IMG/VR virus record: IMGVR_UViG_3300046791_000336
Coordinates: 1 to 54,797 of that record
Source: a virus
DNA: 54,797 nucleotides
Strand: one strand, 5' to 3'
In this document: positions 1-39,721 of the stretch, one piece after another
How positions within the stretch are numbered: position 1 is the stretch's first letter
How the letters are laid out: each line of letters starts with the position of its first letter
Notes under the pieces: generated by a model
Seen by the model: only the letters and a program-made list of their open reading frames with translations
Databases searched by the model: none
Told to the model about the DNA's origin: nothing
Program-made: the position numbers and the translations under genes

Positions 1-179
1 TCGATGACCCGCACGACATGGCGGACACCGAGAACGAGATCACCAAGACGGTAGACGACTACAACGCTGCGGTAGCGAACCGTATCAACGACCCCCGTAC
101 GTCGATTCGCACGGCCATCATGCAGCGCTTTCGAGAGCGGGACTTCTCAGGGCACGTGCTCGGGACGTCGCCCGAATGA
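1..179 (+). CDS. Terminase large subunit, middle segment (partial, 5' end outside window)
   Basis: This is the end of the terminase ATPase domain. Read from base 3 it begins DDPHDM, the Walker B/DDP signature of phage large terminases, and ends GHVLGTSPE followed by TGA at 177-179. The 5' part is very probably the gene that runs off the right end of the window at 54250-54797, whose last residues GEGADWI normally sit just before DDP. Joining the two ends directly is out of frame; two missing bases (or one extra) would restore it. The TGA interrupts the terminase just before the conserved LPMEY strand, which continues in the overlapping gene downstream. Confidence 0.8.
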   Translation, partial: DDPHDMADTENEITKTVDDYNAAVANRINDPRTSIRTAIMQRFRERDFSGHVLGTSPE

Positions 180-985
180 CGAAGTGGTTACACCTGCGGC
201 TCCCCATGGAGTACGAGTCCGTTCCCTCGTGCAAGTGCGGCACATGTGTAGGCAAGAACGTGTACGGCTGGAGCGATTGGCGCACCACGGACGGCGAGGT
301 TGTACACCCACGGTTTACGCCCGAGTTCCTCGAGGCCGAGCGCGTTCGCCTGGGCTCCATGGGCTACGCCGGGCAGATGCAACAGCGACCATTGCCCGAG
401 GGTGGTGGGCTGTTCCCGCTGTCTGCATTCCAACGTAGGTGGGATGAGCTACCCGAGGAGTTGGACCGCGAGATCATCACACTCGATGCTTCGTTCAAGG
501 CTGGCACGAGCTCGGACTACGCGGTCATTCAGTATTGGGTGGCCAAGGGTGCAGACCGCTACCTGGTGGAGCAATGGCGTAAGCAGGCGGGGTTCACGGA
601 TACGCGAGACGCGCTCAAGGACATGCACGCCAAGCATCCCAGGGCCAAGATCCTGGTCGAGTCGGCGGCCAACGGGATAGCCATCTTCGAGCAACTATCG
701 CGCGAGATTGCCGGTGTACTCGAGGTCAAACCTGTAGGCGGCAAGCGGTCTCGTGCGCTCGCGGTGCAGGGCATCATAGAGAGCGGCGCAGTTCTGCTAC
801 CACGCCATGCGTCATGGGTATCGGCGTTTGTCAGCGAGGTCTGCTCGTTCACCGGCGATGGGGATGCGCATGATGACCAGGTGGACGCGATGGTGTACGC
901 GCTGCGGGACATTCAGGATCCTGGCACGCGCCAGAAGTGGGCGGCCGTCAACCGTGGCCTGATGAAGGTGGCGAGTCGCCGATGA
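176..985 (+). CDS. Terminase large subunit, nuclease-domain part
   Basis: 269 residues. The N-terminus carries the LPMEY strand that closes the terminase ATPase domain, followed by the RNase H-like nuclease that cuts concatemeric DNA during packaging. Nuclease acidic residues are visible: Asp in the LDASF strand, Glu in the LVESAANG motif, and DDQVDAM near the C-terminus. The ATG overlaps the upstream stop as ATGA in a different frame, so the terminase is either made as two coupled polypeptides, joined by frameshifting, or broken by a one-base sequencing error. Ends in an ATGA overlap with the next small gene. Confidence 0.85.
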   Translation: MTKWLHLRLPMEYESVPSCKCGTCVGKNVYGWSDWRTTDGEVVHPRFTPEFLEAERVRLGSMGYAGQMQQRPLPEGGGLFPLSAFQRRWDELPEELDREIITLDASFKAGTSSDYAVIQYWVAKGADRYLVEQWRKQAGFTDTRDALKDMHAKHPRAKILVESAANGIAIFEQLSREIAGVLEVKPVGGKRSRALAVQGIIESGAVLLPRHASWVSAFVSEVCSFTGDGDAHDDQVDAMVYALRDIQDPGTRQKWAAVNRGLMKVASRR

Positions 986-1182: not shown

Positions 1183-2661
1183 ATGGGAAAGCGTGGCAAT
1201 CCGAACTGGCGTAAGGGCGGAGAGAGCCCCAATCCAACTGGCAAGAAGCAAGAGCGCCGAGACGGCTGGAGCAACAGTGCCACCGGGCACGGCACCAGCC
1301 TGGACCGTCGCCGCCTGACGCGGTACGGCATTGATGTCGTTACTGACCTCGAGGCGCGCCAACTGTGGCGGTCCGAGTGGCTGTGTAGGCGCATCATCGA
1401 GGTACTGCCAGGTGAGGCAAATCGCCGCGGCTGGGACCTCAAGTGCGATGACAAAGACCTGGTCGAGCGCGTAGAGGCTCGAGCAGAAGAGCTTGACCTA
1501 GACGGCGCCATGACACGGGCTGCCGAGTACGAGCGCGCATACGGCGGGGCTGCGATCCTACCCGTGGTGAGCGGCGCGCTGGGCACGTTGGCACAGCCAC
1601 TCGAGGATGACGCGACCATCGTAAGCGTTGACGCACTGCATGTGCTTGAGCCGTGTGAGCTCACGCCCACCGCGTACCACACGGACCTCTCGTCCCCCAA
1701 GTTCGGCAAGCCTGAGAAGTACCGGTTTATGGCTCAGGGCTCAGGGCGATCGGGGTATCTCCCCATGCAGGAGATCCACGAGTCTCGGCTCATCATCTTC
1801 CCCGGTCGCCGCGTCTCGAGGCAGACACAGCCGGGACAGCGCGAGGGCTGGGGTGATTCCGAACTGAACCAGGCGCGCTCTGCGATCGCAGACGTGGGAC
1901 TCACCTGGGGCTCGGTGGCGACGCTACTCCACGAGTTCGGCCAGGGTGTCTACGAGATAAAGGGGCTGTCCGACATGATGGCGCAGAAGGACGGTCCCGA
2001 GCAGTTACAGCGGCGCATGGATGCAATGGACTTCTTCAAGTCAACTATGCGCGCCACGGCCATCGACGCCGAGGATAGCTACACGCGGATGGATACACCT
2101 GCATCGGGGCTCGACGGCCTACTCATGCAGCAAGCGCAGTGGATATCCGCGATCGCCGACATGCCGATCGAGGTGCTGTTCGGGCGTGAGCCAGCTGGGT
2201 TATCCGCCACTGGCGAGATGACCGTGCGTAACTGGTACGCCAAGGTGGAGAAGGTTGACGCCACCCATTACGCACCGCGTAGAGAACAGATTGTCAAGCT
2301 GCTGATTCTCGAGGATGGCGGCAAGGAGCCCGAGCTGTGGAGCGTCGAGTCAAAGCCGCTGTGGACGCCGAGCGAGGCAGAGGTTGCCAACACCAGGTTG
2401 GTTGACGCACAACGCGCCGCGATTCTGATTGACAAGGGCATCGCGAGCGCAGACGACATCGCAGAATCGTTCTACGGCGGGGATACCTACTCGCCAGAAA
2501 TCAGCATCGACTGGGCTGCTCGAGAAGAGCAGAAGAAGATTGACGAGGAACAGGCCACTGCAATGCAGGAAGCCACCCTAGAGGCGATGAACAAGCCAGC
2601 GGTGGATCCGAATGCGCCTCAAGCCGATGAGCCGCCGGCGCCAGCTCGGGGGCCAAAGTGA
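1183..2661 (+). CDS. Portal protein (DUF1073 / Phage_portal_3 type)
   Basis: 492 residues, usual size for the family. It forms the dodecameric ring at one head vertex through which DNA passes and to which the tail joins. The recognisable signature is the segment with MPIEVLFGREPAGLSATGEM followed by RNWY, typical of DUF1073 portals; the SEWLCRRIIEVLP helix in the N-terminal third also fits. The first 45 residues are basic and low complexity. The start is the ATG placed exactly at the +1 of the leaderless promoter. The gene ends in a GTGA overlap with the collagen-like gene. Confidence 0.9.
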   Translation: MGKRGNPNWRKGGESPNPTGKKQERRDGWSNSATGHGTSLDRRRLTRYGIDVVTDLEARQLWRSEWLCRRIIEVLPGEANRRGWDLKCDDKDLVERVEARAEELDLDGAMTRAAEYERAYGGAAILPVVSGALGTLAQPLEDDATIVSVDALHVLEPCELTPTAYHTDLSSPKFGKPEKYRFMAQGSGRSGYLPMQEIHESRLIIFPGRRVSRQTQPGQREGWGDSELNQARSAIADVGLTWGSVATLLHEFGQGVYEIKGLSDMMAQKDGPEQLQRRMDAMDFFKSTMRATAIDAEDSYTRMDTPASGLDGLLMQQAQWISAIADMPIEVLFGREPAGLSATGEMTVRNWYAKVEKVDATHYAPRREQIVKLLILEDGGKEPELWSVESKPLWTPSEAEVANTRLVDAQRAAILIDKGIASADDIAESFYGGDTYSPEISIDWAAREEQKKIDEEQATAMQEATLEAMNKPAVDPNAPQADEPPAPARGPK

Positions 2662-4247
2662 AACTACGCCGCACAACATCCGACCCCCGCCTGGCAGGCT
2701 CATCGGTCAAGAAGCCGCTTGACATGCCGCTTCTGATTTACGTGGACGGCGACGACGTAGAGTGGCTGTTCAAACACAACGGTGGAGATCAATACGACTG
2801 GGAGCCTGTCAACGTCATTGGCGCGACGGGCGACACTGGCGACACCGGCGGCGACGGTGATCAGGGCGACGACGGCGGACAGGGGATACCTGGTCCGACT
2901 GGACCACAGGGCCCTATCGGTGCAACTGGTGCGCAGGGACCGCAGGGGCTGACCGGTGAGACGGGGCCACAAGGTGAACAAGGGCCGCCAGGCGCCGACG
3001 GGGTGGACGGAGAGGATGGGGCCGACGGATCCACTGGTCCTCAGGGCATACAGGGTATTCCAGGTGCCGACGGTGCCGATGGATCAGACGGTGCCGATGG
3101 CGACACCGGACCACAAGGCGAACAGGGGATACAGGGCGCGACGGGACCACAGGGGATACAGGGATTGACCGGGCCCCAGGGTGCGCAGGGCATCCAGGGG
3201 GAAACCGGCGCGACTGGCGCGACCGGTGCCCAGGGCATTCAGGGCGTACCTGGTGCAGATGGTCTCGATGGCGAGGATGGCGCGGACGGCGCTACCGGAG
3301 CGCAGGGAATACAGGGCATCCAGGGCATCCAGGGGCCAGCTGGTAACACGGGCGCGGACGGAGCAGCAGGCGCAGCAGGCGCCACAGGACCGACCGGACC
3401 CGCCCCATCGGGCACAGGATTCGTCAAGGTCATCTCTGGCGTTCTCCAGGTGCCGAGCGCTGCGATCGCCCAGGCCGACGTTACGAGCCTGGTGTCGGAC
3501 CTGGCAGCAAAAGCGGCAAGCTCGAGCCTGGCCACAGTAGCCACGAGTGGAAGTGCATCGGACCTCGGCACTGGCACGCTACCGATTGCGCGAATCGCGG
3601 CTGGAGCGGTCACGCTAGCTAAGCTAGCTAACGTTGGCGCAGCCAGCATCCTTGGCAGCGTTGCCGGCGGCACACCAGCCGAGCTTACAGGCACGCAGGT
3701 CACAACGCTGCTTGACGTTCGCACTGAGACGCTCAAGGGGTTGATGCCAGCCAACATGGGGCGCAAGGCGTCCCTGGCGACGAACAAGAGCATCGCGAAC
3801 ACGCTTACGCAGGTCGTTGGCTTCACCGCTGCGGCGAACACGCTAGCCGTCGGCACCACGATCCGGTTCCGTGGGATGGGGCTGCTCACCAACACGACAT
3901 CGGCGAGCACGAGTGTGCTCACGCTGCGCATCAACAGCGCCTCGCTTGGCTCCACCATCGAGGCGTCGTGGTCGGTGGCGCTTGGCACAACCGCCCGCAC
4001 CAATTGCCCGTTCATCGTTGAGGGCGAACTGATCGTTATCTCCACGGGCGCAGGCGGTACGGCATGGGGCGTCATCGTGGTCACCGTGAACACCACCACC
4101 GCGATCGCAGTGCCGACATCGATGATCACTGGAGCGGTTACCTGCATCACCACGCAGAGCAACGTGGTGGAGCTTACGTGTGTCAGCGGCGCGGCATCAA
4201 CGACGTGGAACTTCATCTCCGCGACGATTGAGGTTGTGAATCCGTGA
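2658..4247 (+). CDS. Collagen-like fibre protein
   Basis: 529 residues, GTG start overlapping the portal stop. Residues 1-54 form a globular N-terminus; residues about 55-248 are an uninterrupted collagen-type Gly-X-Y tract rich in GPQ, GIQ, GAT and GAD triplets; the rest is an Ala/Thr/Ser-rich region and a beta-rich C-terminal domain from about residue 355. Such proteins trimerise into stiff fibres on virions. Its place between portal and MuF-like genes suggests a head or neck fibre rather than a tail fibre. The glycosyltransferase three genes downstream could modify the repeat, as glycosylated collagens are known elsewhere, but this is inference. Confidence 0.85.
2820..3401 (+). repeat. Gly-X-Y collagen repeat coding tract
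   Basis: About 194 codons with glycine at every third position. At DNA level there are many imperfect direct repeats of the 9-18 base unit around cagggcatccaggg, which may recombine and change the length of the tract. The opposite strand is open across part of this region only because of the repeat composition. Confidence 0.9.
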
Positions 4248-5521
4248 GCATCGCCGCACTCGTCGCCATGCACAGGCGCATGGGCACGGATACCCGTAGG
4301 CGTAAGGCGCCCAAGGCGCGGTTCCCCACGCTCGTGGAGTCGGATTACGCGAAGCAACTGGTCGAAGGTGTCAAGGCATGGCGCGCGGCGATACGTCCGC
4401 TACTGGACGAGCTACCGGCGCTCATGGCTGGTGCCGAGTCCCGTATGCGAGCGGACGATATCGTGTCTGGAAAGCGCGCCAGGGTGCTGATTGACAAAGC
4501 CCGGTACACGGTAACCGCGACGTCGCGCAATCGCGTTGAGCTCATCGCTCAGCGTGTGGCATTGCGCACCGCTGCACACAACAAAGACGAGATGGTTGCC
4601 CAGGCCAAGGCGGCACTCGGCATCGACATCCCGATCAACGACCGCAGGATCGCCGGCATGGCGGAGTCATTCGCACACGAGAACACCGTGCTCGTCGAGA
4701 AACAGGGGCAGAAAACCCTTGACGAGGTAGAGAAACTCATCACCAAGGCGTTTGCGCGAGGTACGCCGGTTGAGGAACTGAACGCCGAGATCGCCGGCAT
4801 GTTCGCTACAGCCGAGAACAACATGCGGTGGTTCGCTCGTGACCAGGTCGCCAAGTTCAACGCGTCCGTTGCCGAGGTGAGGCGCGAGGACTTGGGGCTA
4901 AAGAAGTTCGAATGGGTGACGATGAACGACCGCTACGTGCGGCATACGCATCGCGAGAGGAACCGCAAGGTCTACCCCTACAGCGGAGCAGGTGCGCCGC
5001 CTTACATGCCTGGCGAGGAGTTCGCCTGTCGCTGTGTACCGCGTCCAATCTTCGACGAGATCCGTGTCAAGGCGCAGGAAGGCACGGCCGCGAACCGCTT
5101 TCGCCTGGCGCTACCGCCCAGGTCCAAGGCGAGCGAGCGAGGCTATCGTGGAGACGTCGCTGGGATGCGCGTAGTGATTGCTGGTGGTCCGCGTAGCGGC
5201 AAGACAACGCTAGCTGCCACGATGGGTGAAGCCAAGCACACCGACGACATCATCGATCTTGGGTGGTCAGAGGCGAGCTCGGCCGCGATGACATGGTTCG
5301 ATGCGCCCGGACCATGGGTCATCGAGGGCGTGGCGACTGCTCGCGCGCTGCGTAAGTGGCTCGATGCCAATCCACAGGGCAAGCCGTGTGACGTGGTGTT
5401 CTGGATGCCAGTCCCACACGTCATGCTAGCCAAGGGACAGTCAACCATGCTCAAGGGCTGCGAGGCTGTGTGGCGTCAGGTTGAGCCTGAACTCGTCAAG
5501 AGAGGGGTGGAGATTCGATGA
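4244..5521 (+). CDS. MuF/SPP1 gp7-like head morphogenesis protein fused to a P-loop kinase-like domain
   Basis: 425 residues, GTG start in a GTGA overlap. Residues about 180-275 are a MuF/SPP1 gp7-type domain, shown by the FEWVTMNDRYVRHTH segment and the Cys-rich end motif FACRCVP. These minor capsid proteins enter the procapsid with the portal. From about residue 308 a second domain begins: VVIAGGPRSGKTT is a textbook Walker A loop with GxxxxGKT after a hydrophobic strand, and VVFWMPVPH is a plausible later strand, as in nucleotide or adenylate kinase folds. The fusion is unusual. Ends in ATGA with the next gene. Confidence 0.8.
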   Translation: MSIAALVAMHRRMGTDTRRRKAPKARFPTLVESDYAKQLVEGVKAWRAAIRPLLDELPALMAGAESRMRADDIVSGKRARVLIDKARYTVTATSRNRVELIAQRVALRTAAHNKDEMVAQAKAALGIDIPINDRRIAGMAESFAHENTVLVEKQGQKTLDEVEKLITKAFARGTPVEELNAEIAGMFATAENNMRWFARDQVAKFNASVAEVRREDLGLKKFEWVTMNDRYVRHTHRERNRKVYPYSGAGAPPYMPGEEFACRCVPRPIFDEIRVKAQEGTAANRFRLALPPRSKASERGYRGDVAGMRVVIAGGPRSGKTTLAATMGEAKHTDDIIDLGWSEASSAAMTWFDAPGPWVIEGVATARALRKWLDANPQGKPCDVVFWMPVPHVMLAKGQSTMLKGCEAVWRQVEPELVKRGVEIR

Positions 5522-6087
5522 TTGACATCCCGGCACTCAATGCCCGCATGTGCGAAATCGCGCTCGAGCGTCTGGAGACCATGGGCGAGGAAGGTGGTGG
5601 GCTGTTCAACTACTACTCTCACCTGGCGCGACGCGGGACGATGCTGCGCGCAGAGGAGATTGCGGTCGCCGAGTACATCGATCGCACGGTCATCAAGGGG
5701 ACTCCAATCATGGAACTGTGCGCTGGGGCTGCGCAGTTGAGTCACTTGCTGGATCGGATGGATCACCCAACGTATGCGGTGGAGATTGACAAGCGTAGAC
5801 ATGCGTTCGCCGTTGCCTTGGGCAAGCGTCTCGGCAGTTGCTGCAATGTCATCCTTGACAGTTGGCAGAACATAGAGTTGTCCAAATACGGTCTTTTGGT
5901 CACATTGAATGCAGCCACCACCCACATCTTCCCAGACGACTCCAGGTGGCTCATCGAGTACGCCAAAGGCGGCGGCGAGTTCATCATCCGTCCGCGTCAG
6001 TTCGGCAAGGCTGGCATACCGGTAGAGATTCCAGGGCTACAGTCGACTAAGGTGTTCGAGGATGTCTACCATTACCGATGTCTGTAG
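5518..6087 (+). CDS. Putative SAM-dependent methyltransferase-like protein
   Basis: 189 residues, ATG overlapping the MuF stop. The segment IMELCAGAAQLSHLL resembles methyltransferase motif I (E/DxCxGxG) and YAVEIDKRR the acidic motif II strand that binds the SAM ribose; both lie about residues 62-92. A target-recognition or NPPY-type catalytic motif is not seen, so nucleic acid is not an obvious substrate. With the deacetylase-like and glycosyltransferase genes next door, a sugar or protein substrate is possible. Small for a methyltransferase; the Rossmann call is moderate. Overlaps the next gene by 26 bases. Confidence 0.55.
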   Translation: MIDIPALNARMCEIALERLETMGEEGGGLFNYYSHLARRGTMLRAEEIAVAEYIDRTVIKGTPIMELCAGAAQLSHLLDRMDHPTYAVEIDKRRHAFAVALGKRLGSCCNVILDSWQNIELSKYGLLVTLNAATTHIFPDDSRWLIEYAKGGGEFIIRPRQFGKAGIPVEIPGLQSTKVFEDVYHYRCL

Positions 6088-7090
6088 CCGCCGCGGTATC
6101 ACGCGTGTGGTCCACTGCCACGCCGACCATTTCGAGCCCGAGGGCGTTGCCAAAGAGCTAGGCGCATCGGCAGACGTAGCCCTGTGGCTTGAGCGCTGTA
6201 AGCCGGCCGTGCCCACGCTATTCGTGAAGTGCCCGATCGGGTTTCACCTGGACAGGGATTGGCTGCTCGGCATGCGCCTGTACACGGGTAGCACGTCAGT
6301 GATCGAGGCCGATTATCTGGGTGAGCTCGTGGAACTCGGCGTTGGCATCGGTCTCCACGTTCATCACGAGGCGTGGACGTACAACACGCTTACCAAGCTG
6401 TCCCCGGGACAGCGCGAGCTACACGACTACGTTGTGGCGGAGAACGATCCCAAGATGGACCACGCTCGCATGGTTGCGATGGTCAAGACGTCACTGTCCT
6501 GGCTACGCGATGCGACCGGGCTGCCGCTCGAGACCTGGGGCTTTGTTCACGGCTGCTGGGCGTTCGGCGCGAGCGATCCTGAGATATGCCAACTCGAGAC
6601 CGAGATACCGTTGCTCTACAGCCTTGGCTGTCGTGGAGACTTCTCGTTCCCCGCCGGGCGTCGATACTGCGACCCGACATGGGATAGACCCAAGTGGGTG
6701 CGCCCTGTCGAGGGTAGGCGCGCCTATGAGTTGCCCAGGGCTAGGGTGCGTGACAGGCACATCGACGGCCGCATGCTCGTATGGGCTAGCCGCTGTGATG
6801 ACTGGTGGCTCGGACTGGACACCTACTCGCGAGACTCGCGCAAGCTTACCGAGTCGCCTGACAAGCTCGAGCGCTATCTCGAGATGTGCCCCGTGATCGA
6901 CGGGACCGCTTACATCAAGACCTGCGGTCACGGGATGAACGCTTACTACTGGCAGGGCGAACCTGTGTCCACGGTTGGAGCGTTCGCGGCAGACCTGGCA
7001 GAGAAGTGCGCAGCGGCTGGGGTACCGGTTGAGTTCCTGACCACGGATCAGGTCACGCAGGAACTCATCGCCTCGCGGCCAGCCGCCTGA
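6062..7090 (+). CDS. Putative polysaccharide deacetylase-like (NodB-fold) protein
   Basis: 342 residues. A metal-site-like HADHFEP motif sits near the N-terminus (about residue 20), followed by GIGLHVHHE (about 98-106) and FVHGCWAFGA in the middle, the spacing of His/Asp seen in polysaccharide deacetylase-like proteins of surface-glycan clusters. It would act on a glycan, but no substrate can be read. The ATG lies inside the preceding methyltransferase-like gene (26-base overlap). The 3' end overlaps convergently with the minus-strand glycosyltransferase by 26 bases. An alternative is an unrelated metal hydrolase; the fold call is by eye. Confidence 0.5.
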   Translation: MSTITDVCSRRGITRVVHCHADHFEPEGVAKELGASADVALWLERCKPAVPTLFVKCPIGFHLDRDWLLGMRLYTGSTSVIEADYLGELVELGVGIGLHVHHEAWTYNTLTKLSPGQRELHDYVVAENDPKMDHARMVAMVKTSLSWLRDATGLPLETWGFVHGCWAFGASDPEICQLETEIPLLYSLGCRGDFSFPAGRRYCDPTWDRPKWVRPVEGRRAYELPRARVRDRHIDGRMLVWASRCDDWWLGLDTYSRDSRKLTESPDKLERYLEMCPVIDGTAYIKTCGHGMNAYYWQGEPVSTVGAFAADLAEKCAAAGVPVEFLTTDQVTQELIASRPAA

Positions 7091-8036
7091 CCTCGGCTCG
7101 GTAGGCTACGCGGTCGATCCGCTCCTGGCGCCTGGTCTCGCGCGTATCGATCTTCTGCACATACGGAGGTGGGGCGCGGCCTATCGCCGCATCGAACGCG
7201 TCACCCCATGCCGGCGCTACGTGCGCCCAGGTTCGCTTCTTGAGCATGTCGAGGGCGTTCTGGCTGCCAGCCCAGCGCACGTACTCGAGGTTCTCGCGGC
7301 ACCACTGGAACGCCTGGGCGAATGCCTCTGGGGTGCGCTCTACGACCAGCCCGTTGTCACCATGGCGAACGAGATCGGGCACGATGCCGACGTCAGTGGT
7401 CACCGGAAAACAACCACAGGCCATGCCTTCGATGAGTGGCCGGGGGTCTCCCTCTGCTGTCGAGGCACACGCGATGACGTCTAGGCCGTTGTAGAAGTCT
7501 GGCATCTCCTCCTGTGTTAGGCAGCGGTCAGCCATGCGCAGGTCTGGCGCTGCGGTGGTGAGGATGCCCACGTTCTTATCGGTCGCCGTTGCCGCACCGG
7601 CCCAACCGATCGTCAGGTCGCCGCCGCGCATGTCGTAGTCGCCGAATGTCTCGGGGTGAAACCCCTTGGGACAGAGCGCGACGAACGGTGCCTCGGCTAG
7701 CTCGGTGTGGAGCCGCACCGATGGCACCAGCACGCCCCCGGTCTTTTGCAGGTGTCCGCGTATCAGTTTCTCGGCTGACATCTGCCCGTAGCGCTCTTGG
7801 TGGTTCCAACGGTGACTCGACACCTGTTTTACGACACGCCTGCCGAACCGCTTGTGCAGCAATCCCTTCCACCAGAAATCAACCACCAGGTCAGCGTCCT
7901 TGATGTTGACTCGGTGAGTGCTGTCTGTGTGGCTAACCCTAAACTCGAACCGGTGGGATAGGTGCTTGACAAGCGCCTGGGCGGTTAAGTCGTAGGACCA
8001 GCCCTTTAGATACGGAACCAGCCAGACACGATTCAC
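7065..8036 (-). CDS. Glycosyltransferase, GT-B fold (GT4-like)
   Basis: 323 residues from the GTG at 8036; GTG at 8042 and ATG at 8039 are also in frame, but 8036 is exactly the +1 of the upstream leaderless promoter. The C-terminal half has LTIGWAGA and EGDPRPLIEGMACGCFPV, the donor-sugar site of GT4 enzymes with the E-x7-E pattern and the Gly-rich turn after it. It probably transfers a nucleotide-activated sugar to a cell-surface or virion acceptor. It is the only minus-strand gene in the structural block, yet carries the same promoter class as the late genes. Candidate cargo (moron) gene. Confidence 0.8.
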   Translation of the reverse strand: MNRVWLVPYLKGWSYDLTAQALVKHLSHRFEFRVSHTDSTHRVNIKDADLVVDFWWKGLLHKRFGRRVVKQVSSHRWNHQERYGQMSAEKLIRGHLQKTGGVLVPSVRLHTELAEAPFVALCPKGFHPETFGDYDMRGGDLTIGWAGAATATDKNVGILTTAAPDLRMADRCLTQEEMPDFYNGLDVIACASTAEGDPRPLIEGMACGCFPVTTDVGIVPDLVRHGDNGLVVERTPEAFAQAFQWCRENLEYVRWAGSQNALDMLKKRTWAHVAPAWGDAFDAAIGRAPPPYVQKIDTRETRRQERIDRVAYRAEVRRLAARR

Positions 8037-8074
8037 CATCACAATGTGCTCTGCGTAGCACGTGCGGTCGATTC
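8037..8074 (-). promoter_or_regulatory. Leaderless promoter of the glycosyltransferase gene
   Basis: On the minus strand GAATCGACCGCA begins 38 bases before the GTG at 8036. TCGACC is at -35 to -30, A at -11 and T at -7, as in the plus-strand copies. The inverted copy with identical geometry argues that the motif is a promoter and not a coding coincidence. Confidence 0.72.
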
Positions 8075-8118: not shown

Positions 8119-9201
8119 GTGCTGCAAATCCGATTCGACCGCGGCCCGCTAAACCGCCCTACGCGTCTGGCGAATACCTTTGTTGTAGAAGGTTACGCCG
8201 CTAGGACGCATAGTTCTAGCGACCCGCTCCGCTACGACCACGGCGACGAATACCGTGATGCGGCTGAGCTAAAGCGCATTGCTGACCAGCTGTCTGGACT
8301 GCCCGTAACCCTCTCGCATCCGCCTGGGATGCTTAAGAACGGGGCCAAGGGCCGGATTGTCGGTCGTGTTGACTCTGCGTGGGTGGACGGGGACAAGGCT
8401 GGAGTCCGGCTATCGATTACAGACAGCGCAGCGGCCAAGGATATAGAGGCCGGAACCAAGGAGCTGTCTCTCGGATACACGGTCCGGGTAGACGAGCGTG
8501 GCTACCAACGGGATAGCCAGGCAGACCATTTGGCAATCGTCTCTACGGCGCGCTGTGGGGCGACTTGCTCTCTGCGGACCGACGACTCGGCAGCGGGTTC
8601 GTGCGGGTGTGCCAGTCAAATCGACCAATCAAATAGGCCAACGGAAACTTTCCGTATGCCTGATGCAACTGACAAGGACCGCGCCGACGAATTGAGCGGC
8701 GAGAATAAGCAACTCAAAGCTCGAGTCACCGAGCTTGAGGGCCTTATCGCTGCTGGCGCGCAAGCTGCCGAGAGCGACAAGGTTAAAGCCGAGAAGGAGC
8801 GCGCAGACGCGGCCGAGGCGAAGGTCTCTCGTTTCGACGAGACCTTCCTCGGCGCGGTCCGCGCACGCACCAAGCTCGAGCGTGAAGCCGGCACGGTGAT
8901 GGGTCCCGAGTTCCGCATGGACGACATGACGGAGCGACAGATTCACGAGGGCGTTGTGAAGCGCCTCGATGCAAGCACCGATGTCAAGGCTGCCAATGAT
9001 GCCGAGTTGAAAGGCCAGTACACGGCCCTCATCTCGCTCTCGGCCAAGAACACCGAAAGCCAAAAGCGTGTCGCCGAGATTATCGGTCGCACTGCCCAGG
9101 ACACCCGTAAGGACGACTCCCCGTCCTACGAGGAAATCGAAAACAACCGCTGGAAGAAGACTCTCAGCAAGGGCCGCGACGCTGCGGCGGAAGGCCGATA
9201 G
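8119..9201 (+). CDS. Prohead protease (DUF2213) with C-terminal scaffold
   Basis: 360 residues from a GTG placed at the promoter +1; TAA lies just upstream in this frame. Residues 1-150 match DUF2213 capsid maturation proteases: LSGLPVTLSHPP with the candidate active-site His, a strand like AGVRLSITDSAAAKDI, and the KELSLGYT motif. Residues from about 180 form a charged, Glu/Lys-rich coiled coil typical of scaffold. The arrangement resembles lambda C/Nu3, where scaffold is the in-frame C-terminal part of the protease gene. It assembles inside the procapsid and is later cleaved. Confidence 0.85.
   Translation: MLQIRFDRGPLNRPTRLANTFVVEGYAARTHSSSDPLRYDHGDEYRDAAELKRIADQLSGLPVTLSHPPGMLKNGAKGRIVGRVDSAWVDGDKAGVRLSITDSAAAKDIEAGTKELSLGYTVRVDERGYQRDSQADHLAIVSTARCGATCSLRTDDSAAGSCGCASQIDQSNRPTETFRMPDATDKDRADELSGENKQLKARVTELEGLIAAGAQAAESDKVKAEKERADAAEAKVSRFDETFLGAVRARTKLEREAGTVMGPEFRMDDMTERQIHEGVVKRLDASTDVKAANDAELKGQYTALISLSAKNTESQKRVAEIIGRTAQDTRKDDSPSYEEIENNRWKKTLSKGRDAAAEGR
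8618..8655 (+). promoter_or_regulatory. Internal leaderless promoter for the nested scaffold
   Basis: AAATCGACCAAT inside the protease gene begins 38 bases before an in-frame ATG at 8656; TCGACC at -35 to -30, GAAACT at -12 to -7 with A at -11 and T at -7. The exact match to the intergenic copies, within coding sequence, supports a separate transcript for the scaffold part. Confidence 0.7.
8656..9201 (+). CDS. Nested scaffold protein (in-frame C-terminal product of the protease gene)
   Basis: 181 residues, same frame and stop as the protease gene. It starts MPDATDKDRADELSG and continues with heptad-rich helix (ENKQLKARVTELEGL), the expected character of an internal scaffolding protein that is needed in excess over protease. 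The start is chosen because the ATG sits exactly at the +1 of the internal promoter. Independent expression is inference; the overlap with the protease is seen directly. Confidence 0.7.
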   Translation: MPDATDKDRADELSGENKQLKARVTELEGLIAAGAQAAESDKVKAEKERADAAEAKVSRFDETFLGAVRARTKLEREAGTVMGPEFRMDDMTERQIHEGVVKRLDASTDVKAANDAELKGQYTALISLSAKNTESQKRVAEIIGRTAQDTRKDDSPSYEEIENNRWKKTLSKGRDAAAEGR

Positions 9202-9203
9202 CC

Positions 9204-9767
9204 ATGCCACAGACCGTAGTCAACAGTGCGCCACCGATTGGCACCCCCGGCGACCTCGCCGACCTCCACACCGCGACGGATGGCGACATCCTCTCGGCGT
9301 CAAACTCCGAAGCAGCCGACCCCATCGTCGTTGGGACGATGGTCAAGCGCGGTACGGCCGAGGGTCTTGCCCTCAAGCTGTCCGACAGCCACGACACGCC
9401 ATTCGGCATCGTAACTCGCTCGCACTATGCGACCCCGTCTGACCTCGAGACACTCGAAGTCGACACCGACGTATTCTTCGACGCGCTCAACCCAGATGTG
9501 ATGATGGGTATCGGCCGCACCGGTCGCTACTACGTCCTCATCGAAGAGAACGTCGACTTCGACGACGACGTCCATGTCCGCGCGGAAGCGTCGACGGGCG
9601 AGGTTGCCGGCGCGTTTGGCGCGAGCGACCAGGGCAACGACACGATCAACTGCTCGGCATTCTGCCGCTACTGCGGCGACTACGACGTCGACGGCGACAC
9701 CGGATTCGGCGTTGCAGTTGTGGAAATCAACATGGGACTCGCCTCCCTCGCAGTGACGGATTCGTAA
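9204..9767 (+). CDS. Capsid decoration / structural cement protein
   Basis: 187 residues, ATG two bases after the protease stop. It is Asp/Ala-rich and beta-predicted, with the GTMVKRGTAEGLALKLSD and PFGIVTR segments seen in head-stabilising cement proteins located between protease and major capsid genes. It probably sits on the capsid surface, though membership is judged from position and general look. A good Shine-Dalgarno for the next gene (AAGGAG) follows its stop. Confidence 0.65.
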   Translation: MPQTVVNSAPPIGTPGDLADLHTATDGDILSASNSEAADPIVVGTMVKRGTAEGLALKLSDSHDTPFGIVTRSHYATPSDLETLEVDTDVFFDALNPDVMMGIGRTGRYYVLIEENVDFDDDVHVRAEASTGEVAGAFGASDQGNDTINCSAFCRYCGDYDVDGDTGFGVAVVEINMGLASLAVTDS

Positions 9768-9781
9768 GGAGCAATTGAGTC

Positions 9782-10732
9782 ATGAAACACAAGGTAAGTG
9801 ATCAACGCCTCGACTCGGGAACTACTGTGTTCCTGGAGCGAGAGCTCACGTCCATCGACCCCGCGAAGTACATGGAGCTCTTCGAGGGTCTCCGTGCGAT
9901 GGACTTCGTCCCGCCCATCTCGGGCATCGCTCCCTACGATCGCTCGTACGAGTACTCGATGTGGGGCATCACGGGCGAGGCGAAGAACCTCGGTCCCAAC
10001 GCTCGCGACCTGCCACGCGTTGGCGTGACCCGCAAGGAAGCTAGCCGCTCGATCTCGCCAATTGGCGCATCGTACGGTTGGACGGTTGACGACATCCGCG
10101 CAGCGGCGGCCAAGGGTGTTCCTCTCGAGGAGACCACGGTAATCGCGGCGATGATGGTCATCAAGCGCCGGCTCGACCAGCGCATTGCGCTTGGCGACAC
10201 AACGCTGGGCTACACCGGTCTCGCGAACGACGCGCAGATCGCGACGGACAACTCGGTCTCGCCGGTCAACACGTGGACCAGCGCGGCTGACAAGCTCGCC
10301 TCGTTGAACAAACTGGTGGCGGACACCCGCGCGCGTTTGCTCCAGGCGACCGAGATGCCCGGTGGCGGTGGAATCCCGGCATTCCAGCGGTTCCAGATTC
10401 TGCTCCCCACGGCGGACTACGCCGCGGTTAAGCAGACTCCTGCCAGCTCAAACTACCCGCAGTCGATTCTCCAGGTGTTCCTGGATAACAACAGCGAGTG
10501 GGTCTCTGGTGTGGCCGAGTGGTCGTTGCTCGAAGGTCTCGACTCGGGTGAAGGTCGCGCAGTTTGCTACCCGCTGAGCCCTGCGGCTCTCGGTCATGCG
10601 ACGGCTCGCCTCTACACCGAGGAGCCCCCGCAGGCGAACGGACTGAATATCGATGTGCCGTGCCATGCCTCGAGTGGTGGTTGCGTTATCAGATATCCAG
10701 TTGCGTTCAGCTACATGAAGCTCGGCGCGTAA
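9782..10732 (+). CDS. Major capsid protein (DUF2184 type)
   Basis: 316 residues. N-terminal LERELTSIDPAKY and the Arg/Trp-rich segment SYEYSMWGITGEAKNL, followed by GWTVDDIRAAAAKG, match the DUF2184 group of HK97-fold capsid proteins. It builds the icosahedral shell. The ATG is preceded by a clear Shine-Dalgarno, AAGGAG, with an eleven-base spacing, one of the few strong ones in the late region. There is no long N-terminal delta domain, consistent with a separate scaffold. A short gap with two ATCGGCGCC copies follows it. Confidence 0.85.
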   Translation: MKHKVSDQRLDSGTTVFLERELTSIDPAKYMELFEGLRAMDFVPPISGIAPYDRSYEYSMWGITGEAKNLGPNARDLPRVGVTRKEASRSISPIGASYGWTVDDIRAAAAKGVPLEETTVIAAMMVIKRRLDQRIALGDTTLGYTGLANDAQIATDNSVSPVNTWTSAADKLASLNKLVADTRARLLQATEMPGGGGIPAFQRFQILLPTADYAAVKQTPASSNYPQSILQVFLDNNSEWVSGVAEWSLLEGLDSGEGRAVCYPLSPAALGHATARLYTEEPPQANGLNIDVPCHASSGGCVIRYPVAFSYMKLGA

Positions 10733-10738
10733 TTGTAA

Positions 10739-10773
10739 ATCGGCGCCGTCTGGGAAGAAGTGCCATCGGCGCC
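10739..10773. repeat. Pair of ATCGGCGCC repeats after the capsid gene
   Basis: ATCGGCGCC occurs at 10739-10747 and 10765-10773. The GGCGCC core is self-complementary, so the two copies can also pair as a hairpin with an 18-base gap. There is no T-run, so a classical terminator is not supported; processing or attenuation is possible. Confidence 0.35.
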
Positions 10774-10789
10774 CTACCGTGAGGTTCCG

Positions 10790-11116
10790 ATGGCACATCG
10801 TGTTTGGACCGGTTCGTCTTGGCGCCGTATCTCCGATACGGAAGCGCGGCTGCGCCGTAAGCGCGGCGAGCAAGTCGTTACTGACGAGCCAACCGGCGCA
10901 CTGGCGGACATCTTGGCTGAGAAATACAACCAGGTTGCCCCACTACCTCAGTACGCGGAGGCTGTGCTCAATATCGAGGAATCGATGTTCGAGCTCGAGA
11001 TCGAGCCCCAGCCGCCCAACGCATCTCTGATTGTGGCACAGGACGTTCTAGCCGAGTCGCTTACGGAAATGAGCGACGAAGAGCTCGAGCGCCTGACCGC
11101 TCCGGGCATGGAGTAG
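10790..11116 (+). CDS. Small head-associated protein, unknown
   Basis: 108 residues from the ATG at 10790, which has GAGG six bases upstream; an in-frame start at 10760 would add ten residues but has no ribosome site. The N-terminal 30 residues are basic (WTGSSWRRIS, RLRRKRGEQ) and the C-terminal half is strongly acidic (EESMFELEIE, MSDEELERL). The position between capsid and DUF4054 genes fits a head completion accessory protein. No family recognised. Confidence 0.6.
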   Translation: MAHRVWTGSSWRRISDTEARLRRKRGEQVVTDEPTGALADILAEKYNQVAPLPQYAEAVLNIEESMFELEIEPQPPNASLIVAQDVLAESLTEMSDEELERLTAPGME

Positions 11117-11118
11117 CC

Positions 11119-11484
11119 GTGTCCGATATCGACTGGACCGATGTCGAGGCGATGCAAGCCAATCTATCGACCGTATCCATGGCTGCGCAGGACCTCATCC
11201 TGGCGTACGTCAACGAATCGCTCAATCCGGGTGCGTTCGGCGGCGAGGATTCGGCAAAGTACACGCTCGCGCGTATCTACCTGGCTGCGCACATGGGCGA
11301 ACTGACGCGCCGCAACGGTGCCGGTAACGTCACGTCCGAGACAATCAGCACCGGGTCAATCTCACTGTCCTACGGTGCCATGTCCACGGATGAGGACGCG
11401 CTACTCCAGACGTCATGGGGTGCGCAATACATGGCGTTTGTGCGTCAGTCCTCGCTCCGTATTGGCGGCGGGCGAACCAGATGA
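11119..11484 (+). CDS. Head completion protein (DUF4054-like)
   Basis: 121 residues, GTG start two bases after the previous stop. The all-helical N-terminus with ILAYVNESLNPGAFG and the segment YTLARIYLAAHMG match DUF4054-type connector proteins, which lie directly after the capsid gene and bind under the portal ring. A C-terminal SYGAMSTDEDALLQTSWGAQY is also typical. ATGA overlap with the next gene shows coupling. Confidence 0.7.
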   Translation: MSDIDWTDVEAMQANLSTVSMAAQDLILAYVNESLNPGAFGGEDSAKYTLARIYLAAHMGELTRRNGAGNVTSETISTGSISLSYGAMSTDEDALLQTSWGAQYMAFVRQSSLRIGGGRTR

Positions 11485-11869: not shown

Positions 11870-12481
11870 ATGGGGAGACCGGTTATTGATATCGCTGGTC
11901 AGAGGTTTGGTCGGCTGACGGTCGTTTCTTTCCACGGGATTCATCAACGCAATAGTGCCTGGCTGTGCGCGTGTGACTGCGGAAAACCAACGATTGCGAC
12001 AGGCCACAAGCTTAAGAGCGGTGGTACCAGGTCGTGCGGGTGCCTAAGGACAGAGATCCGCACGTCGCATGGGCTGGCAGGAACAGACACATACCGTATT
12101 TGGGGAGGGATGTTGTACAGGTGCCGCAATGAACACGATCCGAACTATGGCGGCCGAGGTATACGAGTCTGCGAACGGTGGAAGTCATTCGAAAACTTCC
12201 TGGCAGACATGGGTGAGCGCCCCAGCCAACGGCATTCCATAGATCGATATCCTGACGTCAATGGCGGATACGAGCCCGGAAATTGTCGTTGGGCGACAGA
12301 CGCCGAACAGGCACACAACACCAGATTAACAATCCTGGAACCACACGAGCCGGAACAAATCCGGTGGCTGGCGGGGCTCGGATACCGACAGGCGGATATC
12401 GCTCGATTCTTCGGCGTCACCCCGAGCACCGTTAGCGTGGTGGTTAAGAACAAACAGTGGGTTAGCCAGGTGCGCTCGTGA
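11870..12481 (+). CDS. Homing-type HNH endonuclease, copy 1
   Basis: 203 residues. N-terminal FGRLTVV followed by a zinc knuckle (CACDCG, SCGCL), then the HNH/AP2-like core NYGGRGIRVCERW, SIDRYPDVNGGYEPGNCRWA, and a C-terminal helix-turn-helix (YRQADIARFFGVTPSTVSVV). Such free-standing nucleases cut alleles that lack them and spread by repair. Two relatives lie at 31991-32659 and 39086-39721. It sits between two connector genes and overlaps the next start by four bases, so insertion left neighbours intact. Confidence 0.85.
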   Translation: MGRPVIDIAGQRFGRLTVVSFHGIHQRNSAWLCACDCGKPTIATGHKLKSGGTRSCGCLRTEIRTSHGLAGTDTYRIWGGMLYRCRNEHDPNYGGRGIRVCERWKSFENFLADMGERPSQRHSIDRYPDVNGGYEPGNCRWATDAEQAHNTRLTILEPHEPEQIRWLAGLGYRQADIARFFGVTPSTVSVVVKNKQWVSQVRS

Positions 12482-31350: not shown

Positions 31351-32022
31351 ATGACGCAGACACAAGACGCCTGCGCCTCCTCCACCCAAGAAGACAAACT
31401 CCTCGCTGCCGGCGAACGAGCGCTAGCCGAAGCCGTCCGCCTGTGGAGCCTGGACGTCTACGATCCCAAACGATCGGACAAGACGCCAGCGGGCGAGCAC
31501 AGCCGGAAGATCATCCAGGAGATCGTTAACGCCGCGGGGTGGACGTGGATCGATTACGACGGGGACGGTCGGGTAGAATGGTGCGGTCTGCATGCCGCAG
31601 CCTGTTGGCGAGCAGCAGGCATCGATCCGAAGTGGCTCGCTACGTTCTGGGCGTCAACGTACCGGCTCGATGCGTGGGCGACATACCGAGACTTCAACAA
31701 CCACAAGAACCCCAAGCCAGCGCAGGGCCCGTATCGCCTCGTGGCCAAGTTGGACTCGAGTAGCAAGGTGCTACCGTTCGAGCCGCGAGCCGGCGACATC
31801 CTGACGGTAGGCGATGGCATCCCGGCGTTCGGGGATCACATCACGATCGTGGAGTCGTGGGACGAGGCGAGGGGAATTTTTATCGTGTTGTCTGGGAACG
31901 GGGGCGGCTTGGGTCCCGACGGTAAACGGAGACAGGGAATCGTCAGGAGCGAGTTCCGTCTTGGCGGCTCTGGATATTGTGCCCGGCGAATTATCCGGCC
32001 TGCTCCGTCAGATCTTCTTTGA
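31351..32022 (+). CDS. Endolysin, CHAP-like peptidase
   Basis: 223 residues. The core has EWCGLHAAACW with the candidate catalytic Cys after Trp, and later AGDILTVGDGIPAFGDHITIVESWD with the catalytic His, then LSGNGGGLGPDG, the order and spacing of CHAP/NlpC-type amidase or endopeptidases. It would cleave host peptidoglycan at lysis. No signal peptide, so release needs a holin. The last 11 codons overlap the convergent HNH gene, so its original C-terminus may have been replaced by the insertion. Confidence 0.75.
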   Translation: MTQTQDACASSTQEDKLLAAGERALAEAVRLWSLDVYDPKRSDKTPAGEHSRKIIQEIVNAAGWTWIDYDGDGRVEWCGLHAAACWRAAGIDPKWLATFWASTYRLDAWATYRDFNNHKNPKPAQGPYRLVAKLDSSSKVLPFEPRAGDILTVGDGIPAFGDHITIVESWDEARGIFIVLSGNGGGLGPDGKRRQGIVRSEFRLGGSGYCARRIIRPAPSDLL

Positions 32023-32659
32023 GCCATGTCTCACCGTGCGCCACATGCCTGACTGCTGGCTCCGGCAGATTGAGCGTGGCCACGATGTCCTTGATGGACC
32101 GTCCGATGGAGCGCAGTTGCCTGATGGTTTCCACATCAGACTCCGTGAGCACGGTGGCCCGCGTGTTCCTGGCTTGCTGTGTTCGGGTCGCCCAACGAAC
32201 ATTCCCGGGCTCGTAGCCGCGGCTGTTGTCGATTCGATCGAGTTCGTGCTTGGGCGATGGGCGCTCTCCCATATCGGCAAGGAAAGCGGTGAAGTCCTGC
32301 TGCCATCGATCGCACACGCGTATGCCGCGGGCTCCGTAGTCTCTGTAATCATCGCAGCCGGCGTCCGAGCAACGCTGGCGCATTCTCTTCCACGTTCCAT
32401 AAAGCGGATGGCGCGGAACGCTGGTTCGCGAGTAGCCGTGCCTCCGTGCGCGGGTTGCCATCAGCACCGACTGTATCTCTCGCAGCAGACAGCCGCAGGA
32501 CTCGCTCCTGCCAGACCTGAGCCCGCTGGAGAGCACAGAGCGCTCTACGCCGCAATCACACCGGCACTGCCAGCGCGCGCCGCCTCCGGTCATTTTGTCG
32601 AGGGACAGCACCAGCCAGCGCCCGAATCTCTCCCCTGTCAGATCCAAGAATCTTGGCAT
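31991..32659 (-). CDS. Homing-type HNH endonuclease, copy 2
   Basis: 222 residues. Same architecture as the copies at 11870 and 39086: FGRWLVL, zinc knuckle CRCDCG and SCGCL, core DYGARGIRVCDRW, ELDRIDNSRGYEPGNVRWA, and C-terminal HTH (RSIKDIVATLNLPEPAVRHV). It is convergent with the endolysin and inserted between it and the integrase region. Opposite-strand open frames over this gene are shadows. Confidence 0.85.
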   Translation of the reverse strand: MPRFLDLTGERFGRWLVLSLDKMTGGGARWQCRCDCGVERSVLSSGLRSGRSESCGCLLREIQSVLMATRARRHGYSRTSVPRHPLYGTWKRMRQRCSDAGCDDYRDYGARGIRVCDRWQQDFTAFLADMGERPSPKHELDRIDNSRGYEPGNVRWATRTQQARNTRATVLTESDVETIRQLRSIGRSIKDIVATLNLPEPAVRHVAHGETWLKEDLTEQAG

Positions 32660-32706: not shown

Positions 32707-32913
32707 ATGAAACCGATCGGCAAGCTTGAGACGGGGCCGTGCTCCGGTCCCCACGAGTTCATCATCGGCCAGTACGGCAACTGTTTGTCCGGCGCCTGCC
32801 ACAGGCCGCGGTGTGTCTGCGGATCCCACGACACCGAACCGTTCACGCTGCCCAAAGCCGGAGCCTGGCACTGTCGCCCCTGCGGCCACGTGTTCTGGCC
32901 GGCGGTCCGCTAG
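32707..32913 (+). CDS. Small zinc-binding protein
   Basis: 68 residues from the ATG at 32707; an in-frame ATG at 32689 would add six. Cys pattern: GPCSG, NCLSGACHRPRCVC, then WHCRPCGHVF, enough for two zinc sites. Its stop overlaps the end of the integrase on the other strand. Not recognised, but typical of phage zinc-ribbon regulators. Confidence 0.5.
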   Translation: MKPIGKLETGPCSGPHEFIIGQYGNCLSGACHRPRCVCGSHDTEPFTLPKAGAWHCRPCGHVFWPAVR

Positions 32914-34433
32914 GCATACGCAACCACGCGTCTCTTAATGGTGTATTCGTGGTGGGTTCTGCACGCAGATGCCTCTACGAGTGACTCCGCCTGAACCGCC
33001 CGGAACCGCATGGTTATCGTCACGCATTTGTTCTCAACCTCCGCCCGCTTGACGATGGATTGTACTACCCGGCGCCTGTCCTCGGGTGTGCCCGATTCGG
33101 CGAGTCGGGTCATGGCGGCGATGTAGGCGGCCGGATCGATGGCACCCTCGCGATCACCCGTCACGGCACGCTCCGCCGTCTGCAACTGCTCTGCGGTGAA
33201 CGCGCGCTCCTTGCGCAGCGCTGCTAGCTCCACGTCCAGGGCGTCATCCGAGATCATCCCCTTGCGGTAGCGCGCTAGGAACGCCTGCTCCGCCTTCGTG
33301 AGACGCGCCAGGTCAGCCTTGTATTTGGCAGCGTCCTTCTCCCACGCCTTGCGGTTGCCGCTGCGCTCGTCTGCACGCTTAGCCAGCGCCTTCGCGAGCC
33401 GCGGATCCTGCAACTCGGATAGGACCGAGTCCCACACCGCGGCGTCAATCTCGGCGACCAGCGCGCTCGGCGCCTTGCATCCCTTACCGAGTCGCCTCTC
33501 GCGGCAGTAGTACCGGGCCGGGTGCCTTCCGCCGTCCGCCGTCTGGATGCAGATCTTACCGCCACATTCGCCGCACGTTGCCAGCGCTTCGAGTAGGTAG
33601 ATGTGTCGGGTTCTTCGGAGTCCGCGTTGCTTGCCGCTGGTCACGGCTTGTTGTGCCCGCTGCCACGTCACCTCGTCAACGATCGGCGGCACACGAACGA
33701 CCACGTGGAACCGCGTGTTGGCCAGCCACTCGCCGACAGGATAGCGGGCCGTGACGATGCGCCACACGAGGTGGTCGTGCCAGATGCCGGTCTGCGATGG
33801 CTCGCCTCGGGCGCGCAAGTCGTCCGCGATCGTCTTGCACGAGTCGCCTGCGATGACGCGGCGGAAGATCTCGCGGACGATCCTCGCGTGCTCCGGGTTG
33901 AGCGACCACTCCTTGGTGGCGCGATCGTAACCAAGCCCGTACGGCGTCCACCCGTTCGGCTTGTGGCCGTTCTCCGCGGCGCGTAGTAGTCCGCGCTTGG
34001 TGCGCTCGGCTCGCTTGCGGTTCTCCTCTGCCGCGAACACGGCCTGCAGCGTGACGTAGAGCTCGCCGATCATCGTGCGGAGATCCAGCTCGCCACCGCT
34101 CGGTGTGACGATGCGAATCCCGGCCGCCTGGAACGGGCCAAGGATGGCCGCGCGTTCCTGCATGTCATCGGTTCGCGTGAGCCTGTCGATGTCGATCACC
34201 ACCAGGACATCGAACCGCCCGGCGTGCGCGTCCTTCAGCAGCCGAGCGAAGCCTTCGCGCTTGTCTAGCTTGCCGGCTCGTGCGCTGCGCCCGTCATCAA
34301 TGTACGTGTCTACGAGCAACCAGCCCTGTGCCTTAACGAACGCCGGCAACACGCGTAGCTGAGACTCGATGGTCTGCGATTCTCGTTGCGCTTGGCTGCT
34401 GACGCGTGCGTATATCGCGGCTCTCGTAATCAC
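32910..34433 (-). CDS. Large serine recombinase (integrase)
   Basis: 507 residues, GTG start overlapping the upstream small gene. Resolvase domain: AAIYARVSSQAQRESQTIESQ with the nucleophilic Ser, the YIDDGRSA loop, and VVIDIDRLTRTD. A recombinase domain follows (PYGLGYDRATKEWSLNPEHARIV), then a zinc-ribbon (ATCGECGGKI ... YYCRERRLGKGC) and a coiled coil (AKYKADLARLTKAEQAFLARY). It would integrate the phage between attP and attB without host factors. An attP was not identified beside it. Tail of small early genes lies upstream on the same strand. Confidence 0.9.
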   Translation of the reverse strand: MITRAAIYARVSSQAQRESQTIESQLRVLPAFVKAQGWLLVDTYIDDGRSARAGKLDKREGFARLLKDAHAGRFDVLVVIDIDRLTRTDDMQERAAILGPFQAAGIRIVTPSGGELDLRTMIGELYVTLQAVFAAEENRKRAERTKRGLLRAAENGHKPNGWTPYGLGYDRATKEWSLNPEHARIVREIFRRVIAGDSCKTIADDLRARGEPSQTGIWHDHLVWRIVTARYPVGEWLANTRFHVVVRVPPIVDEVTWQRAQQAVTSGKQRGLRRTRHIYLLEALATCGECGGKICIQTADGGRHPARYYCRERRLGKGCKAPSALVAEIDAAVWDSVLSELQDPRLAKALAKRADERSGNRKAWEKDAAKYKADLARLTKAEQAFLARYRKGMISDDALDVELAALRKERAFTAEQLQTAERAVTGDREGAIDPAAYIAAMTRLAESGTPEDRRRVVQSIVKRAEVENKCVTITMRFRAVQAESLVEASACRTHHEYTIKRRVVAYA

Positions 34434-39085: not shown

Positions 39086-39721
39086 TCATTGGATGTTGCT
39101 CCACGTGGCTCCGCTAACCACTCGATACACGGTCGCGGTAGTTACACCGATGGAGTCTGCGATTGATTGCGCCCGCTCGCCAGCAGCACGCCTTCGCCTA
39201 ATCTCCAGAACGGACTCCGCCGTTAGCTTCGTTCTCGTGGTGTTCTGCGACTGCTCAAACGGCGTCGCCCACCTGCAGTTGCTTGGTTCGTAGTTGCCAT
39301 TGCTGATCGGATATCGATCGATCGACTTACCCGCCGGGCGCTCTCCCATGTCAGACAAGAAATTAGCGAAATCGGTTCTCCATCGCTCACATACAGTAAC
39401 TCCACGGGCCCCGTAATTGGGGTAGTCCTTGTCGCGCTCGAGGGTGCAGCGGCGCACCATGCGGATCCATGACTCATACGTTGGCGAGTGACTATATCCA
39501 TGACGAAAGTTCGGGCCGCTGGTTCCTCTCCACACCTCACCGATGAGACAGCCGCATGATTTGGTGTGTCCAGAGTTTAGTTTCTCGGCTACAACCACAG
39601 TTTCTGCGCCGCAGTCACAGATGCACCGATATTGATATTTACGATTCGGTGTCTTGCCAACGATCTCGGCGACGGAAAGACGACCGAACCTGCGGCCAGT
39701 CAAAACGGTCAGCTTAGGCAT
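39086..39721 (-). CDS. Homing-type HNH endonuclease, copy 3
   Basis: 211 residues, ATG with GGAG six bases before it. FGRLSVAEIVG, zinc knuckle CICDCG and SCGCL, core NYGARGVTVCERW, SIDRYPISNGNYEPSNCRWA, and C-terminal HTH (RAQSIADSIGVTTATVYRVV). Related to the copies at 11870 and 31991. It separates the SSB gene from the upstream early genes. Confidence 0.85.
   Translation of the reverse strand: MPKLTVLTGRRFGRLSVAEIVGKTPNRKYQYRCICDCGAETVVVAEKLNSGHTKSCGCLIGEVWRGTSGPNFRHGYSHSPTYESWIRMVRRCTLERDKDYPNYGARGVTVCERWRTDFANFLSDMGERPAGKSIDRYPISNGNYEPSNCRWATPFEQSQNTTRTKLTAESVLEIRRRRAAGERAQSIADSIGVTTATVYRVVSGATWSNIQ

What the first reader, a model, noticed from the sequence alone, without database searches (positions are those of the whole stretch)
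4244..5521. MuF/gp7-like capsid protein fused to a P-loop kinase-like domain
The CRCVP-terminated MuF domain is followed by a full Walker A loop GGPRSGKTT in a 118-residue domain. Minor capsid proteins of this class sometimes carry C-terminal effector domains (toxins, ADP-ribosyltransferases) that may be injected. A nucleotide-binding kinase domain as cargo would be a new type.
Basis: partly seen in the sequence, partly recalled or inferred. Interest (0 to 1): 0.66.

Follow-up and report, generated by a model that had tools for sequence, protein, structure and literature searches.

The report
Capsid-targeted small kinase in phages
This phage head protein carries a small, well-formed kinase-type enzyme at its tail end, and related uncultured phages attach the same enzyme to at least three other proteins that end up inside the growing head, which suggests the enzyme is loaded into the virus particle and perhaps delivered with the DNA.

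Summary
ORF 4244-5521 is one 425-aa frame: a MuF/SPP1-gp7-like head protein, a 42-aa linker, and a 118-aa P-loop domain (residues 308-425). AlphaFold models the domain at pLDDT 97; fold searches return small-molecule/NMP kinases (shikimate, adenylate, gluconate). It belongs to an unnamed, apparently virus-specific family: about 98 relatives in IMG/VR, one among 50,697 phage records, one misbinned-looking contig among 84,980 genomes. Most relatives are separate genes beside portal, MuF, head protease or terminase. Elsewhere the domain is fused to portal (5 contigs), inserted inside MuF (8), or joined to the head protease (4, divergent variant) or a scaffold or scaffold-like protein (7); single contigs join it to TerS and TerL. 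Its active-site signature stays invariant and under purifying selection. Best reading: a kinase tethered to procapsid-interior proteins, packaged and probably ejected with the DNA. 'New type' is only partly right: zeta-toxin-like kinases on MuF, and Nudix enzymes on MuF, portal and protease, are published. New are this kinase family and its breadth of carriers. Substrate, activity and virion presence are untested; the C-terminal MuF fusion is known from this contig alone.

The parts
4244..5521 (+). MuF-kinase fusion gene, 425 aa, GTG start
4244..4723 (+). MuF N-terminal helical region (residues 1-160)
   Evidence: PHROG 324 match from residue 8; long helices at high pLDDT in the full-length model
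4724..5038 (+). Phage_Mu_F domain, residues 161-265, ending in the CRC motif
   Evidence: Pfam PF04233 E 3.8e-15
5039..5164 (+). Linker, residues 266-307
   Evidence: MuF proteins of relatives mostly end 5-12 aa after CRC; in-frame coding signal; low pLDDT
5165..5518 (+). P-loop kinase-fold domain, residues 308-425
   Evidence: AlphaFold pLDDT 97.2; Foldseek shikimate kinase E 2.4e-4, VIA-align adenylate kinase Z 9.2
5183..5206 (+). Walker A, GGPRSGKT
   Evidence: G, P, G and K identical in 99/99 distinct homologs
5324..5353 (+). E-G-V-A-T-A-R-A-L-R motif: acid at the Walker B position plus two arginines
   Evidence: E and second R identical in 99/99, first R in 96/99
5165..5167 (+). Internal in-frame ATG that lines up with starts of stand-alone relatives; GGAG 11 nt upstream
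   Evidence: use as a start is not shown
176..985 (+). Terminase large subunit, C-terminal part (incomplete near the window edge)
   Evidence: Pfam Terminase_6C 2.5e-17
1183..2661 (+). Portal protein
   Evidence: Pfam Phage_portal_3 1.5e-74
8119..9201 (+). DUF2213 head maturation protease
   Evidence: Pfam 4.3e-16; PHROG 530
9782..10732 (+). Major capsid protein
   Evidence: Pfam PF09950 3.5e-29

Best explanation
The C-terminal domain is a minimal P-loop kinase of a virus-specific family whose genes live in the head-packaging operon. In this phage it is carried by MuF. By analogy with SPP1 gp7, MuF binds the portal and is taken into the procapsid in a few copies, so the kinase would be packaged in the head and most likely leave with the DNA, acting early in infection on a small molecule or nucleotide. 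Relatives reach the procapsid interior by other routes: fused to portal, inserted in MuF, or joined to the head protease or a scaffold protein. Shown: the fusion ORF, the predicted kinase fold, the conserved active-site signature, purifying selection, the operon location and the range of fusion partners. Inferred: catalytic activity, packaging, ejection and substrate class.
For: Fold: pLDDT 97.2, shikimate kinase E 2.4e-4, adenylate kinase Z 9.2 over 114 of 118 residues. Walker A, the acid and an arginine are invariant in 99 distinct domains, fused ones included. dN/dS is 0.04-0.52, and 0.04-0.17 in copies inserted in MuF. 55 of 70 loci have a terminase, portal, MuF, protease or capsid gene within 5 kb and 45 within 500 bp, across several portal and terminase families. 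Fusions: MuF insertion, portal C-terminus, DUF2213 N-terminus, scaffold N-terminus directly before the major capsid gene. MuF/gp7 targeting to the procapsid through the portal is established for SPP1 (PMC6316719). The nearest kin by portal, L086 (56%), has a different MuF tail with an HExxH-like stretch in the same place, so the slot looks exchangeable.
Against: No virion proteomics or activity data. One contig each fuses the domain to TerS (L028) or TerL (L040), which do not stay in the virion. Most family members are separate genes, so tethering is not required. The usual lid arginines of NMP kinases are not obvious. The C-terminal MuF fusion is unique to this contig.
Confidence: 0.5

Rival explanations
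1. The kinase works during assembly, not after ejection: it sits at the portal vertex or in the procapsid and handles nucleotides there, for example recycling ADP or AMP made by the packaging motor, or regulating assembly.
For: Partners cover the whole assembly and packaging machine, including TerS and TerL. Adenylate kinase is the best structural match by VIA-align. Scaffold and protease are normally lost at maturation (general knowledge).
Against: The domain lacks the separate NMP-binding and LID insertions of true adenylate kinases (118 against 214 aa). Middling Z scores are shared by many P-loop kinases. Most phages fetched by portal similarity show no such domain nearby.
Confidence: 0.25
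2. The fusion in this phage is incidental. Neighbouring operon genes merged by stop loss (or a contig error), and the kinase acts as an ordinary late-expressed soluble enzyme, possibly made from the internal ATG at 5165.
For: Most relatives are separate genes. The internal ATG lines up with their starts. Only this contig shows the C-terminal MuF fusion.
Against: In-frame coding signal across the 42-aa linker. At least four other kinds of fusion in 24 other contigs. Inserted copies inside MuF are under strong purifying selection.
Confidence: 0.2
3. It is a toxin of the MuF polymorphic-toxin class, aimed at competitor bacteria, with a neutralising partner next door.
For: The window phage looks temperate: a large serine recombinase and a Cro/CI-type HTH gene, and MuF toxins belong to temperate phages (PMC5576092). 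A 189-aa ORF overlaps the kinase stop (5518-6087).
Against: The ORF at 5518 has no significant family match, and its sequence looks methyltransferase-like rather than a typical small immunity protein. No shared downstream partner of the stand-alone kinase genes stood out in the neighbour clusters.
Confidence: 0.05

Closest known systems
MuF proteins with C-terminal effectors (SPP1 gp7 / Mu gpF class; MuF polymorphic toxins, PMC5576092; Apk2, PMC12226406)
   Same: MuF domain, head-operon position, C-terminal enzymatic extension, temperate-looking phage
   Different: The extension is a P-loop kinase fold, not an RSH-type adenosine pyrophosphokinase or ART. No immunity gene recognised. Relatives also attach it to other head proteins.
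Zeta-toxin-like kinase fused to MuF (PMC5512222)
   Same: P-loop kinase joined to MuF in phages
   Different: No zeta toxin Pfam match in any of 69 members at E 1e-3; short (118 aa); own signature motifs
NudE-like Nudix domains fused to MuF, portal or capsid protease (PMC9503650)
   Same: Same three kinds of fusion partner and the same predicted packaging and injection
   Different: Unrelated enzyme: Nudix hydrolase against kinase fold. Scaffold fusion not mentioned in the passages read.
Shikimate, gluconate and adenylate kinases
   Same: Core fold, Walker A, order of strands and helices
   Different: 9-19% identity in the listed Foldseek shikimate kinase hits, 10-23% in the listed VIA-align hits; no long lid insertion; invariant RALR and GQxxM motifs not typical of them (general knowledge)

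Membership tests
MuF/gp7-like head protein | Phage_Mu_F domain above the curated cut-off | tested here: met
   57 bits against 29.6
MuF/gp7-like head protein | Gene in the head operon after the portal | tested here: met
   TerL, portal, MuF, DUF2213, MCP in order, with extra genes between
MuF polymorphic toxin | C-terminal extension with toxic activity | not testable with these tools
   Extension present; toxicity needs an experiment
MuF polymorphic toxin | Adjacent immunity gene | tested here: inconclusive
   Overlapping ORF 5518-6087 without a significant family match
MuF polymorphic toxin | Encoded by a temperate phage | tested here: met
   Serine recombinase at 32910-34433 and Cro/CI-type HTH at 43618-44061; lifestyle itself is inferred
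P-loop kinase (fold group) | Kinase-type P-loop fold with Walker A | tested here: met
   (predicted structure)
P-loop kinase (fold group) | Phosphoryl transfer activity | not testable with these tools
   Needs an assay
Pfam AAA_18 / AAA_28 / AAA_24 | Score above the curated cut-off | tested here: not met
   14-15 bits against 27-29 for the window domain; 26 of 69 members match AAA_18 at E 1e-3 or better
Zeta toxin (PF06414) | Pfam match | tested here: not met
   No match in 69 members at E 1e-3
Adenylate kinase | Long NMP-binding and LID insertions (about 214 aa) | tested here: not met
   118 aa; about eight residues between the strand at 77-81 and the C-terminal helix at 90-112

The most novel reading that the evidence does not exclude
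A virus-specific kinase family is a general capsid cargo: different phages have solved the problem of getting it into the procapsid independently, by fusing it to MuF, portal, protease or scaffold, and it is released with the DNA to change a host nucleotide or cofactor pool in the first minutes of infection.
Probability: 0.35. Interest if true: 0.75.

Novelty: new variant of a known kind. Interest (0 to 1): 0.6.

Why it matters
Repeated fusion of one small enzyme to many different proteins of the procapsid is strong guilt by association that the enzyme belongs in the head. The family is practically absent from cultured phages and has no database name, so it would be annotated as 'AAA domain' or hypothetical. 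It gives a directly testable case for enzymes carried inside virions, and a natural set of examples of how proteins get loaded into phage heads.

Tried and rejected
Frameshift or assembly artefact: not supported by the coding signal or by the other fusions, though not excluded for this one contig. Zeta toxin: no Pfam match. Direct relatives by single-protein scans of viral and genome collections found nothing, and plasmids gave none; alignments were needed. PDB sequence searches gave only generic Walker A matches. Three other members, besides the window domain, searched against named phages found only MW202476.1. A search for prophage copies found one contig, 99% identical to a viral contig. 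Residues 222-300 of the full-length model are unreliable (pLDDT below 50), so the MuF C-terminal region was not interpreted from it. The tree could not resolve where the window's domain sits. One call used wrong coordinates for the domain and was repeated with 5165-5518.

Full report
The window is an IMG/VR virus record. The ORF at 4244-5521 encodes 425 aa. Its first 265 residues are a MuF/gp7-like head protein (Pfam PF04233 E 3.8e-15; PHROG 324 1e-42), placed after the terminase and portal and before the DUF2213 head protease and major capsid gene. MuF proteins of relatives mostly end 5-12 aa after the CRC motif. Here a 42-aa linker and a 118-aa domain follow. The linker carries the same coding signal as the flanks.

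The 118-aa domain has no curated family of its own. AlphaFold with 69 sequences gives pLDDT 97.2 and pTM 0.89. In the full-length model the domain keeps pLDDT near 97 as a separate unit, while residues 222-300 are not modelled reliably. Foldseek ranks shikimate kinases first in the PDB (E 2.4e-4). VIA-align gives adenylate kinase Z 9.2 (rmsd 2.8 over 114 residues) and gluconate kinase Z 8.1; these middling values support the fold group, not a function. The chain order is strand, P-loop, helix, two helices, acid-bearing strand, helix, strand, long helix, with almost no lid.

A first relative was found in MW202476.1, a 77-kb siphovirus from a spring, as a separate gene directly after the portal. 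Iterated scans found 98 relatives in IMG/VR, of which the best 80 were kept. Only MW202476.1 turned up among 50,697 phage records with four queries. One contig in 84,980 genomes matched, and it is 99% identical to a viral contig. The family is therefore mainly known from uncultured viruses, within the reach of pattern searches.

Among 70 distinct loci (the window included), 55 have a terminase, portal, MuF, DUF2213 or capsid gene within 5 kb, and 45 within 500 bp; the nearest of those 45 is portal in 25, MuF in 13, TerL in 6 and DUF2213 in 1. Several of the rest have such genes by PHROGs. No formal background rate was computed and the loci are not independent, but the neighbours belong to several different portal and terminase families.

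Fusions recur. (a) Inserted inside MuF, between sister residues about 79 and 91, in eight contigs (L060, L066 truncated, L069, L080, L081, L082, L129 truncated, L140). (b) At the C-terminus of the portal in five contigs (L052, L161, L200, L206, L211). (c) A divergent variant at the N-terminus of the DUF2213 protease in four contigs (L143, L166, L170, L171). (d) At the N-terminus of a scaffold or scaffold-like protein in seven contigs; homology to annotated scaffold proteins was tested for L187 (E down to 3e-6) and L195, L196 and L204 resemble L187, while L183, L184 and L191 are assigned only by position or appearance. In L187 the next gene is the major capsid protein. (e) One contig each with TerS (L028) and TerL (L040). 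The MuF-insertion rows form one group apart from the window in the domain tree, and the two MuF fusions differ in layout (internal against C-terminal), so they most likely arose separately, though the window's own place is unresolved.

Walker A G, P, G and K, the acid and the second arginine of RALR are identical in 99 of 99 distinct domains, fused ones included. dN/dS between related copies is 0.04-0.52, and 0.04-0.17 in copies inserted in MuF. The enzyme site is therefore kept while the carrier changes.

In SPP1, gp7 is taken into the procapsid by binding the portal, and toxin fusions to gp7-like proteins were proposed to use this route (PMC6316719). Fusions of effectors to MuF and portal, including a zeta-toxin-like kinase on MuF, are published (PMC5512222), as are Nudix enzymes on MuF, portal and capsid protease (PMC9503650). 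The present family fits that class but is a different kinase with a wider range of carriers. In the phage closest by portal (L086, 56%) the MuF tail is different and holds an HExxH-like stretch, as expected for an exchangeable slot.

The reading favoured here is a capsid-targeted kinase, probably ejected with DNA. A role during packaging and an incidental fusion remain possible, and the single-contig status of the C-terminal MuF fusion is the main weakness.

Noticed in passing
window 2658-4247 (+): A 529-aa collagen-repeat protein (Pfam Collagen 1.3e-29) lies between portal and MuF inside the head operon; SPP1 also has a collagen-like capsid-associated protein.
   Followed up: partly
window 5518-8042: Three genes with no evident head function sit between the fusion gene and the head protease: a methyltransferase-like ORF overlapping the stop, an unidentified ORF, and a glycosyltransferase on the minus strand (Pfam 2.4e-15).
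   Followed up: partly
window 32910-34433 (-) and 43618-44061 (-): Large serine recombinase and a Cro/CI-type HTH gene, so the phage is probably temperate.
   Followed up: partly
window 11870-12481, 31991-32659, 39086-39721: Three ORFs that begin with similar 'GxRFGRL' and 'CxCDCG' motifs, resembling a repeated homing-endonuclease-like family.
   Followed up: no
L086 MuF ORF 9431-11260; L069 and L080 MuF ORFs: MuF proteins with other C-terminal tails, including HExxH-like stretches, so these proteins carry varied cargo.
   Followed up: partly
L158 and L162: MuF proteins fused to ADP-ribosyltransferase exoenzyme domains (Pfam 2.7e-6 and 1.2e-13).
   Followed up: no
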